64,000 bases of DNA from Clostridia bacterium. GTDB lineage: Bacteria > Bacillota > DSM-521 > Neomoorellales > SLTJ01. Below are positions 39,424-42,147 of the stretch, piece by piece. Each line of letters starts with the position of its first letter. The first letter of the stretch is position 1. The stretch spans positions 1 to 64,000 of the forward strand of contig SLTJ01000028.1 of assembly GCA_004347685.1 (NCBI GenBank). The letters run 5' to 3'. Both the position numbers and the translations under genes were made by a program. The notes beneath the pieces are model-generated. The model was not told the origin of the DNA and did no database searches. It worked only from the letters and a program-made list of their open reading frames with translations.

Positions 39424-39478
39424 GGAAGATCCAGCCGCAACTGGCCGACGGGATAAGGAGACAGATTGTTATTGCGGG

Positions 39479-39613
39479 GTAACTACTCAGCCTCCATGCC
39501 GGTCGGAGGTCGGGCGGCGAACGACTGAAGACGCTAGCCGGGTTATCAGGCTTCGCGAAAGTGACGGCGAGGCCGCTGACAGCGGCTGTGATAGCGGTGG
39601 CCTGAGCAGTTAC
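39479..39613 (+). mobile_element. MITE-like repeat, copy A, with 8-bp target duplication
   Basis: A 135-bp element with terminal inverted repeats GTAACTACTCAG / CTGAGCAGTTAC (11 of 12). The perfect direct repeat ATTGCGGG flanks it on both sides (39471-39478 and 39614-39621). Copies B and C share the ~115-bp core. GTAA ends with an 8-bp duplication recall IS66-family elements, but no transposase is in the window. The core is rich in self-complementary stretches (CCTCC/GGAGG; GCCGCT-GAC-AGCGGC). Confidence 0.8.
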
Positions 39614-39642
39614 ATTGCGGGTTTGATGCCGGGTGGCTGGGG

Positions 39643-39849
39643 GTGCATGCCAGGGTGAATATCAATGGCTCCGAACTGCTGATCATCCTTATTGTGGCTA
39701 TGATTGTGCTCGGCCCCAGGGAACTGCCGAAGATGGGGCGGACGCTGGGGAACGCCGTGCGGGAATTTCGCAAAGCCTCCAGCGGGATCACTGCGGAACT
39801 CGGCCTGGACAAACTGCTGGAAGAGGAGAAGCCCAAGGAACAGGGCTAA
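39643..39849 (+). CDS. tatA: TatA/TatB-like translocase protein (second copy)
   Basis: 68 residues: one helix (ELLIILIVAMIVLG) followed by PRELPKMGRTLGNAVREFRK and a short charged tail. GPRELPKMGR resembles TatB as much as TatA, so this may be the TatB-type partner in a two-TatA system. The start is uncertain: GTG 39643 or GTG 39655. A mobile repeat lies immediately upstream and another downstream. Confidence 0.85.
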   Translation: MHARVNINGSELLIILIVAMIVLGPRELPKMGRTLGNAVREFRKASSGITAELGLDKLLEEEKPKEQG

Positions 39850-39857
39850 TGATTAGA

Positions 39858-39973
39858 CAGCCTCCAGGCCGGTCGGAGGTCGGGCGGCGAACGACTGAAG
39901 ACGCTAGCCGGGATATCAGGCTTCGCGGAAGTGACGGTGAGGCCGCCGACATGGCTGGGATAGGCGGTGGCCT
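39858..39973 (+). mobile_element. MITE-like repeat, copy B (ends degraded)
   Basis: The core from CAGCCTCCAGGCCGG to GGCGGTGGCCT is about 90% identical to copy A, but the terminal inverted repeats are lost (GATTAGA on the left, TTAGTAG on the right). No target duplication is seen. It begins 9 bp after the second tatA stop. From 39974 to 40135 no gene is recognised. Confidence 0.75.
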
Positions 39974-40135
39974 TTAGTAGACGCCCATGCCACTGGACAG
40001 TGGCACCAACGAAGGATGAAAATGGCAGCGAGCGCCTGGTTTTTGTAGTTACAGGCTAATAACGGCTTGCACCATTGGATCGGCGAACGGCCGTCTGCCT
40101 CCGTCGGCTCTTGGCCTTGATGTGGGGGTGAGGGT

Positions 40136-40900
40136 TTGGCTACGGCGGAGAAAGAAATGACCTTGATGGAGCACTTGGAGGATCTGCGCCGGGTGCTGGT
40201 TATTTGTGCCGTAACCCTGGCCATAACCACGGGTATCGTTTATGGTTTCTTCCGCCGGGAACTCTACGACTGGGTGACTTCGCCGCTACAGCAGTACCAT
40301 GTACCCCTGGTGTTTATCGGCCTCGGTGAGGCCTTCATGACCCAGATCAAGCTGGCTTTTTTTGCGGGCTTTATTCTGGCCTTGCCGGTGATTTTGTGGC
40401 AAGTGTGGGGGTTTATCGTCCCGGCCCTCCAGCCGGAGGAACGGCGCAAGGTCAGGCTGATTGTGCCCCTCTCAGTAGTGCTGTTTCTGGCCGGAGCGGC
40501 CTTTGCCTACTTTGCCGTCTTTCGCTTCGCGGCCCGCTTTCTCATCCTTGTTGCCGGACCGGACCTGCAGCCCATGATCAGCATCGGGCAATACGTTTCC
40601 TTCCTGATTTCCTTTCTGCTCCCCTTCGGGCTGGCTTTTGAATTGCCCCTGATCATATATTTTCTCGCCCACTGGGGCGTGGTGTCAGGGGATTGGCTGG
40701 CCAAGAACCGCAAGTTCGCCATCTTAATTATCTTTGTCGCGGCCGCGGCCCTCACCCCGGGGCCGGATGTGATCTCGCAACTCCTGATGGCCGGGCCGCT
40801 CCTGCTCCTCTATGAGGTGAGTATTTGGGCCGCCAGGGCGGCGGGGAAGGGGCGAGAGGCGGCCCAGGCCGGCCCGGGAAAGGCGGAGGTTAGAAGTTAG
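40136..40900 (+). CDS. tatC: Twin-arginine translocase subunit TatC
   Basis: 254 residues, six membrane helices. TatC recognises the twin-arginine signal. Diagnostic motifs: MEHLEDLRRVLV at the cytoplasmic N-terminus, the FMTQIKLAFFAGFILALPV loop and FALEL-like LPFGLAFELPLIIYFLAHWG. TTG 40136 follows GGGGGTGAGGG. The tail runs into a heptanucleotide repeat that encodes the last codons. Confidence 0.95.
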   Translation: MATAEKEMTLMEHLEDLRRVLVICAVTLAITTGIVYGFFRRELYDWVTSPLQQYHVPLVFIGLGEAFMTQIKLAFFAGFILALPVILWQVWGFIVPALQPEERRKVRLIVPLSVVLFLAGAAFAYFAVFRFAARFLILVAGPDLQPMISIGQYVSFLISFLLPFGLAFELPLIIYFLAHWGVVSGDWLAKNRKFAILIIFVAAAALTPGPDVISQLLMAGPLLLLYEVSIWAARAAGKGREAAQAGPGKAEVRS

Positions 40901-40911
40901 AGGTTGGAGTG
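40885..40911 (+). repeat. Heptanucleotide repeat tract, site 5
   Basis: GAGGTTA GAAGTTA, then GAGGTTG GAGTGAG: about four 7-bp units overlapping the tatC stop codon and running up to the riboswitch. Confidence 0.75.
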
Positions 40912-40925
40912 AGTAATTACAACCA

Positions 40926-41046
40926 CATAACGTTCTCCGAGCTTGGAGGCCTGCGGGAGAAATCCTATGGCCTTCAGGCCTGAACCCGGGTCGGGTTCAC
41001 AGGGCAAGGCTGGAAACGGCGTTGCCTCCCTTGTCAGGAAAGGAGA
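40926..41046 (+). promoter_or_regulatory. Molybdenum cofactor (Moco) riboswitch aptamer
   Basis: CTCCGAGC near the 5' side, a variable hairpin (GGCCTTCAGGCC), AACCCGGGTCGGGTT, and the strongly conserved 3' block TTGCCTCCC-TTGTC-AGGAAAGGAG are the features of the Moco/Tuco RNA family known upstream of moa and mod genes. It precedes modABC, the expected regulon. GAAAGGAG (41038-41045) is complementary to the loop of the following terminator. Confidence 0.85.
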
Positions 41047-41060
41047 AATCTTGAGCAATG

Positions 41061-41095
41061 AGGCTCTGTGCTCCTTTCGCGCAGAGCCTTTATTT
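41061..41095 (+). terminator. Riboswitch-controlled terminator before modA
   Basis: AGGCTCTGTGC (41061-41071) pairs with GCGCAGAGCCT (41079-41089), followed by TTTATTT. CTCCTTTC in its loop (41071-41078) can pair exactly with GAAAGGAG of the aptamer, giving a mutually exclusive antiterminator. Confidence 0.8.
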
Positions 41096-41221
41096 GTGGT
41101 GGCGGCCCGCCTCGCCACCGCTTCCACCTCGCTGCCGGAGACGCCACCGGCGGCGGTCCTGCCGCTATTTTGCGCTGTTTGAGGGAGTATGCGGCGTCAT
41201 GTGGCCCTGGAGGAGGATCCA

Positions 41222-42061
41222 TTGAAGAAGCAACTTCGGAACCTCGTTTTTCTGCCAGTTATCCTGTTGCTCGCCCTATTTCTCCCCGGCGGCTGCGGCC
41301 AGAGAGACGCCGGGGCGGAAAACAGGGTGGTGGTTTTTGCCGCCTCCTCCCTGACCGACGTTTTTCAGGAGCTGGGCCAGGCCTTTTCTCGGAAACACCC
41401 GGAGATTGAGGTGCAATTTAACCTGGCCGGAACCCAGACCCTGGTGAACCAGTTACGGCAGGGGGCAGAGGCCGATCTGCTGGCTTCGGCCGACACCGCC
41501 TACGTGGACGAGATCGCCGCCGCGGGGATGGTAGCGGCCTCCAGGGCCATGGCCTATAACCGGCTGGTACTGGCTGTCTACCCGGACGCGGCCGGCCGCA
41601 TCCGGGGTGGAGAAGATCTTTCCGGGCCGGTGCGCCTGGTGCTGGCCGCAGAGCAGGTGCCGGCGGGGCGGTACACCCGCCAGGCCCTAGAACAGATAGA
41701 GGCGGTGGAGGGGCCGGGGTTTGCCGCCCGGGTGCTGGCCAAGGCGGTGTCGCAGGAGCTTAACGTGCGCCAGGTTCTCAGCAAGGTAACCCTGGGGGAA
41801 GCCGACGCGGGCTTTGTATACTATACCGACGCCGTGGCGGCGGGGGATAAGGTGGTCATCAGGGAACTGCCGCCGGCAGGGCAGGTGCGGGCCACCTACG
41901 TCCTGGCCCGACTGCGGCCGGCCCCTAACCCCGGCGGCGGCCAGGCCTTTTACGACTTCGTCCTGTCGCCGGCGGGGCAGGAGATTCTTGCCCGGCGGGG
42001 GTTCATGCCCAATAACTACTCAGCCTCCAGGCCGGTCGGAGGTCGGACGGCGAACGACTGA
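41222..42061 (+). CDS. modA: Molybdate ABC transporter substrate-binding lipoprotein ModA
   Basis: 279 residues. TTG 41222 follows GGAGGAGG and gives a lipoprotein signal (LLLALFLPGGC). Oxyanion-binding motifs: VFAASSLTDVFQELG, NLAGTQTLVNQLRQGAEADL, and VTLGEADAGFVYYTDAV. It binds molybdate or tungstate outside the membrane. The last 11 codons (NYSASRPVGGRTAND) derive from the inserted repeat copy C, which replaced the original stop; the natural end is probably near GFMPN. Confidence 0.94.
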   Translation: MKKQLRNLVFLPVILLLALFLPGGCGQRDAGAENRVVVFAASSLTDVFQELGQAFSRKHPEIEVQFNLAGTQTLVNQLRQGAEADLLASADTAYVDEIAAAGMVAASRAMAYNRLVLAVYPDAAGRIRGGEDLSGPVRLVLAAEQVPAGRYTRQALEQIEAVEGPGFAARVLAKAVSQELNVRQVLSKVTLGEADAGFVYYTDAVAAGDKVVIRELPPAGQVRATYVLARLRPAPNPGGGQAFYDFVLSPAGQEILARRGFMPNNYSASRPVGGRTAND

Positions 42062-42147
42062 AGACGCCGGCCGGGTTATCAAGCTTCGCGAAAGTAACGG
42101 CGAGGCCGCTGACAACGCTACTGATAGGCGGTGGCCTGAGCAGTTAC
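42012..42147 (+). mobile_element. MITE-like repeat, copy C, overlapping modA
   Basis: 136 bp with ends ATAACTACTCAG / CTGAGCAGTTAC and a core about 90% identical to copy A. It starts inside the modA reading frame and supplies the modA stop codon. The flanks (CATGCCCA left, GTTTTCCA right) show no target duplication, so the insertion is old or one flank was rearranged. Confidence 0.8.

What the first reader, a model, noticed from the sequence alone, without database searches (positions are those of the whole stretch)
39471..42147. Three copies of a ~135-bp structured mobile repeat, one with a perfect 8-bp target duplication
Copies at 39479, 39858 and 42012 share a ~115-bp core. Copy A has 12-bp terminal inverted repeats and ATTGCGGG on both sides; copy C rewrote the end of modA. 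GTAA termini and 8-bp duplication point to an IS66-type transposase acting in trans. The core is strongly self-complementary and more conserved than a passive MITE needs, so an RNA function is conceivable.
Basis: partly seen in the sequence, partly recalled or inferred. Interest (0 to 1): 0.62.

Follow-up and report, generated by a model that had tools for sequence, protein, structure and literature searches.

The report
IS66-driven MITE with nested mini-IS110
The three repeats are copies of a short mobile DNA element, present about 40 times in this bacterium, that borrows the cutting enzyme of an IS66-type jumping gene; one copy has itself been hit by a second, 68-base element derived from the IS110 family, whose enzymes find their targets with a guide RNA and which here repeatedly lands in the ends of the first element.

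Summary
Observation confirmed. Copies A and C, and a decayed copy B, belong to a ~135-bp family with about 40 blastn places in the 3.1-Mb genome. Eight of 22 copies tested have exact 8-bp target duplications (0.35 expected; none at 7 or 9 bp). The IS66 guess holds. The ends (GTAACTRCTCAGSC) match IS66-family elements (TnpC plus DruA) in relatives and published ISBst12-group ISDge4. The driver is missing from the draft assembly only because it was collapsed: 18 contig ends stop inside its two termini, and 7 pairs of them share exactly 8-bp flanks. Other cores with the same ends exist here and in a relative, so these are MITEs cross-mobilised by an ISBst12-group IS66 element. An RNA role is not supported: covariation equals shuffles. 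That insert is the two ends of a bridge-RNA IS110 element fused together (autonomous versions found in the same family, elsewhere in the phylum and on an Alicyclobacillus plasmid). It is found in 23 of 41 genomes searched and repeatedly sits at this TIR position. A good case of nested parasitism; the driver IS110 was not found in this genome.

The parts
39471..39478 (.). left 8-bp target duplication of copy A (ATTGCGGG)
39479..39613 (+). MITE copy A, 135 bp, TIRs GTAACTACTCAG / CTGAGCAGTTAC
39614..39621 (.). right 8-bp target duplication of copy A (ATTGCGGG)
39843..39850 (.). left target duplication of copy B (GGGCTAAT)
39851..39980 (+). MITE copy B, main part (decayed left TIR; right TIR up to ...TTTAGTAG)
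39981..40048 (+). nested mini-IS110 (element 2): ACGCCCATGCC-hairpin-GGCACC...TTTTTGTAG, inserted at GTAG|TTAC of copy B's right TIR (a 4-base GTAG repeat makes the boundary ambiguous by up to 4 bp)
40049..40052 (+). last four bases (TTAC) of copy B's right TIR, beyond the insert
40053..40060 (.). right target duplication of copy B (AGGCTAAT, 7/8 match)
42012..42147 (+). MITE copy C, 136 bp, no target duplication; supplies the C-terminal codons of the modA frame
41189..42061 (+). modA-type ORF (290 aa frame) ending inside copy C (...GFMPNNYSASRPVGGRTAND*)
   Evidence: name from the finding and the neighbouring molybdenum riboswitch; not tested by HMM

Best explanation
The repeats are MITEs: non-autonomous elements of ~135 bp. 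They consist of the terminal inverted repeats of an IS66-family (ISBst12-group-like) insertion sequence around a non-coding core, moved in trans by that element's DDE transposase with 8-bp target duplications. In copy B a second non-autonomous element lies inside the right TIR. It is 68 bp long and made of the left and right ends of an IS110-group element, most likely inserted by an IS110 recombinase whose bridge RNA reads the ...GTAG target in the TIR. Shown: family, ends, 8-bp duplications, presence of the IS66 driver's ends in the genome, identity of the insert's two ends with those of autonomous IS110 elements, and repeated insertion at the same TIR position. Inferred: trans-mobilisation in both cases, and bridge-RNA guidance in this particular host.
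For: About 40 own-genome places. Exact 8-bp duplications in 8 of 22 copies, 0.35 expected. Driver ends: own contigs stop 37-60 bases into two sequences E1 and E2; E1 is 48/52 identical to the tnpC-side end of the G130 element, and E2 55/60 to the G094 and 48/60 to the G130 and G014 druA-side ends. Seven of nine E1 ends pair with an E2 end through exactly 8-bp reverse-complementary flanks. G130 element: PF03050 transposase, DUF6444, zf-IS66, plus DruA PF14236, with duplication ATTGATTT. Published ISBst12-group ISDge4 has TIRs GTGACTACTCAGCA/GTAACTGCTCAGCA and an 8-bp repeat (PMC12898284). Other cores share the same TIRs and 8-bp duplications here and in G019. Insert: head and tail equal the first ~46 and last ~20 bp of IS110 elements in A. 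dauci, G024 and G001. It occurs in 23 of 41 genomes, 47 hits in the own genome. About 9 of 37 own copies sit in the same GYAG|TTAC TIR site and 18 follow another copy's tail. Guide sequences in the IS110 leader agree with each element's left flank (mean 6.25 bases against 2.7 for other elements' guides; 1 of 120 label permutations, the true one) and with its own right end (8 bases against 2-3).
Against: No IS66 transposase gene was found in the assembled own genome; its presence rests on contig-end sequences. No autonomous IS110 with these ends was found in the ~0.8 Mb of own genome read; one distant IS110 transposase (47% identity) is there. Y1 transposase, the rival driver for the insert, is absent from the own assembly and from the two other genomes rich in it that I checked, G011 and G022, so it does not compete. 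The set of 37 own insert copies was not a random sample.
Confidence: 0.93

Rival explanations
1. The core is a functional structured RNA or cis-regulator that has been spread or kept by selection, and mobility is secondary.
For: Copies A and C fold better than shuffles (z -3.1 and -2.7). The core is about as conserved as the TIRs.
Against: 41-pair consensus structure: 91.5% of cells paired against 91.3% in shuffles; covariation score 0.095 against 0.093. Copy B does not fold better than shuffles. No Rfam match. The core was not found outside this species, and other cores with the same ends exist.
Confidence: 0.04
2. The insert in copy B is a REP/IS200-605-type (HUH) element: GTAG tetranucleotide plus hairpin.
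For: GTAG next to a covarying hairpin resembles REPs listed in PMC2817692.
Against: No Y1_Tnp in the own assembly, in G011 (complete, 42 copies) or in G022 (32 copies). Both ends equal those of IS110 elements with DEDD transposases.
Confidence: 0.03
3. The MITE is a segmental duplication or recombination repeat, not a transposed element.
For: Some copies, including C, lack target duplications.
Against: Eight exact 8-bp duplications and none of other lengths; TIRs shared with an IS.
Confidence: 0.01

Closest known systems
ISDge4 and the ISBst12 group of the IS66 family (PMC12898284)
   Same: TIR GTAACTGCTCAGC / GTGACTACTCAGC; 8-bp target duplication; zf-IS66 + DDE_Tnp_IS66 transposase
   Different: ISDge4 has a single ORF; the elements found here carry a second, DruA-domain ORF, and the MITE carries no ORF
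Bacterial MITEs
   Same: Short, non-coding, TIR-bounded, many copies, target duplication of the driver's length
   Different: No IS66-linked MITE family was found in the paper library with the terms tried; several unrelated cores share one TIR type
IS110 elements and bridge RNAs / seekRNA (PMC11208160, PMC11187229)
   Same: DEDD transposase (PF01548 + PF02371), guide-bearing leader upstream of the transposase, guides matching left target and donor end, no TIRs
   Different: The insert keeps only ~46 + ~22 bp of the ends and no guide RNA or gene
IS4321/IS5075 (target the TIRs of Tn21-family transposons; Partridge & Hall 2003, cited in PMC11187229) and IS621 (targets REP elements; PMC11208160)
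   Same: IS110/IS1111-type insertion at a fixed position in another mobile repeat
   Different: Here the inserting element is a miniature derivative and the target is an IS66-type TIR

Membership tests
MITE of an IS66-family (ISBst12-group) element | TIRs match those of the driver | tested here: met
   GTAACTRCTCAGSC in the MITE, in own contig-end sequences and in G014/G130/G094 IS66 elements
MITE of an IS66-family (ISBst12-group) element | 8-bp target duplication | tested here: met
   8/22 exact, only at 8 bp; 7 collapsed driver copies also 8 bp
MITE of an IS66-family (ISBst12-group) element | No coding capacity, multi-copy | tested here: met
   about 135 bp, about 40 places
MITE of an IS66-family (ISBst12-group) element | Driver transposase gene in the same genome | tested here: inconclusive
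   PF03050 absent from the assembly, but its two termini are at 18 contig ends
MITE of an IS66-family (ISBst12-group) element | Mobilisation in trans shown | not testable with these tools
   needs a transposition assay
IS66 family (driver, as seen in G130) | TnpC-type DDE transposase with zf-IS66 | tested here: met
   PF03050 2e-52, zf-IS66 2.2e-7
IS110 group (insert in copy B) | Ends identical in kind to those of elements with a DEDD transposase | tested here: met
   A. dauci, G024, G001
IS110 group (insert in copy B) | Own transposase and bridge RNA | tested here: not met
   The insert is 68 bp; hence a derivative, not an IS110 element itself
IS110 group (insert in copy B) | Target and donor guides in the leader match flank and end (autonomous relatives) | tested here: met
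REP / IS200-605 | Y1 (PF01797) transposase available | tested here: not met

The most novel reading that the evidence does not exclude
A ~70-bp class of miniature IS110 elements, spread through many Bacillota genomes, is moved by RNA-guided IS110 recombinases in trans. In this lineage its guide target is the TIR of IS66-type elements, so one selfish element disarms another by RNA-guided insertion at a fixed base.
Probability: 0.6. Interest if true: 0.7.

Novelty: new variant of a known kind. Interest (0 to 1): 0.5.

Why it matters
It settles a many-copy repeat as IS66-driven and shows that a collapsed IS can be recovered from contig ends by its 8-bp duplications, which also tells which contigs adjoin. 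The nested insert matters more. It gives many natural sites of miniature IS110 elements, including a mini-copy beside an autonomous copy whose guide matches both target sites (8 and 7 bases). It suggests that the bridge-RNA system moves very short donors in nature, as the published 22-bp trans-donor experiment (PMC11208160) would allow. It also adds an IS66-type TIR to the list of mobile-element ends that IS110-type enzymes target.

Tried and rejected
RNA function of the MITE core: covariation and Rfam negative. IS66 in the assembled own genome: none. Insert as REP/IS200-605: rejected by absence of Y1 transposase. Insert in Rfam: none. Insert in viral contigs and phages: none. MITE in plasmids: none. 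Own IS110 with guide RNA: not found in 0.8 Mb of own genome or in the other loci. Papers on IS66 MITEs: none with the terms tried.

Full report
Observation. The window holds three related ~135-bp repeats between and behind a tatA-tatA-tatC cluster and at the end of a modA-type gene. The whole genome (54 contigs, 3.12 Mb) holds 40 blastn places. For 22 copies with recognisable ends I compared the flanks: 8 have identical 8-mers on both sides, 0.35 are expected by re-pairing, and no copy has an exact duplication of 5-7 or 9-12 bases. Several more have 8-mers with one mismatch. These are transposed elements with an 8-bp target duplication. Copy A is intact. Copy C has intact or nearly intact ends but no duplication. 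Copy B was read as a partial copy and is in fact complete (below).

The driver. The TIR GTAACTRYTCAG occurs exactly 69 times in the genome, and the reversed control 0 times. Many sites lie 36-60 bases from contig ends, in two recurrent sequences, E1 and E2. In a relative (G014:C56) and in a more distant genome (G130) complete elements of ~2.4 kb are bounded by the same two ends. The G130 element encodes an IS66 transposase (PF03050, zf-IS66, DUF6444) and a DruA-domain protein, and has an 8-bp duplication, ATTGATTT. In the own genome, 7 of 9 E1 contig ends match one E2 contig end each through exactly eight reverse-complementary bases. So at least seven full copies of this IS exist but were collapsed by the short-read assembly; that explains why PF03050 finds nothing in the assembly. 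Literature agrees: ISDge4 of the ISBst12 group has the same TIR and an 8-bp repeat (PMC12898284), and ISPpa5a/ISPpa7 of IS66 also make 8-bp repeats (PMC3281130).

Other cores. Elements with the same TIRs, 8-bp duplications (exact or with one mismatch) and different cores occur in the own genome (C10:52843, C31:14144, C1:135270, C12:21342). One with ~125 bp and again a different core is in tens of copies in G019. The core is therefore a passenger. Its conservation (0.90) is not above that of the TIRs (0.92), and covariation on 25 copies equals shuffles.

The nested element. Copy B's right TIR reads ...CCTTTAGTAG, then 68 bases, then TTAC. After those come AGGCTAAT, against GGGCTAAT before the left end. 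The same kind of insert splits the same TIR position in other MITE copies (C27:3817, whose target duplication also reappears beyond the insert; C6:121579; C18:13223; C20:34113; C10:68827; C15:13793). The insert has a conserved head ACSCYCATGCC-hairpin-GGCACCA-CAGAGGATGAAAATGG and tail TATTTTCAGGGTAG. A covariance model of the head finds 47 own hits and hits in 23 of 41 genomes (126 in G019, 42 in G011, 32 in G022). The hairpin covaries (0 of 500 shuffles reach the score).

What the insert is. A plasmid search returned an Alicyclobacillus dauci sequence 95.7% identical to the head, ~250 bp upstream of an IS110-family transposase (Pfam PF01548 and PF02371). That element begins with the head and ends with the tail (CAATTATTTTCAGGATAG). 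Elements with both ends and a 61-71% identical transposase lie in G024 and in G001, a member of the window's own family. Between head and gene lies a conserved leader with two variable spots. One ends in the same bases as the element's left flank (5-8 bases, mean 6.25, against 2.7 for other elements' guides; only the true assignment of 120 reaches the sum). The other ends in the same 8 bases as the element's own right end. This is the logic of a bridge RNA with target and donor guides (PMC11208160; PMC11187229). In G024 a mini-copy lies next to the autonomous copy, and its target matches that copy's guide over 8 bases. The 68-bp insert is therefore the two ends of such an element joined. Movement in trans is plausible because a 22-bp donor suffices for IS621 when the bridge RNA is supplied separately (PMC11208160).

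Target preference. Of 37 own copies read, 18 stand behind the tail of another copy. About nine stand in IS66-type TIRs, at CTGAGYAG|TTAC or close variants, whereas such 8-mers make up 0.2% of AG-ending sites in the window (the 37 are not a random sample). G019 shows the same TIR position hit (L110, L352, L426). This parallels IS4321/IS5075 in Tn21 TIRs and IS621 in REPs. The insertion leaves four bases of the TIR outside, which should disable that MITE end (inference).

What is not shown. I did not find an autonomous IS110 of this type in the own genome, so the guide that would read GAGTAG here is a prediction. No transposition was tested. Novelty is judged against the papers and collections available here only.

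Noticed in passing
window 40924-41061: Molybdenum/tungsten-cofactor (Moco) riboswitch, 88.8 bits, upstream of the modA-type gene.
   Followed up: no
own contigs C1/C19, C4/C26, C18/C13, C23/C3, C45/C37, C35/C46, C10/C3: These contig-end pairs share 8-bp reverse-complementary flanks at collapsed IS66 copies, which predicts adjacency in the finished genome.
   Followed up: partly
L096:1635-3098 (G000:C31): The 3' end of a miaB-type gene (487 aa) appears to run into a remnant of a second MITE core with the same TIR, as modA does in copy C.
   Followed up: no
L269, L268, L283: IS66-type elements carrying a DruA-domain ORF; DruA relatives occur in 41 of 399 phylum genomes, also away from these ends. 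Its role in transposition is unknown.
   Followed up: partly
L327, L102, L389 (G000 C40, C48, C7): Long forms of the mini-IS110 with an extra hairpin and CTCACCTCT repeats before the TTTTCAGGGCAG tail, some in tandem 132 bp apart.
   Followed up: partly
MITE family 1 alignment, columns 101-108: Two alternative blocks (TGACAGCGG or GCTCAAAGG) segregate among copies, suggesting recombination between copies or two master lineages.
   Followed up: no
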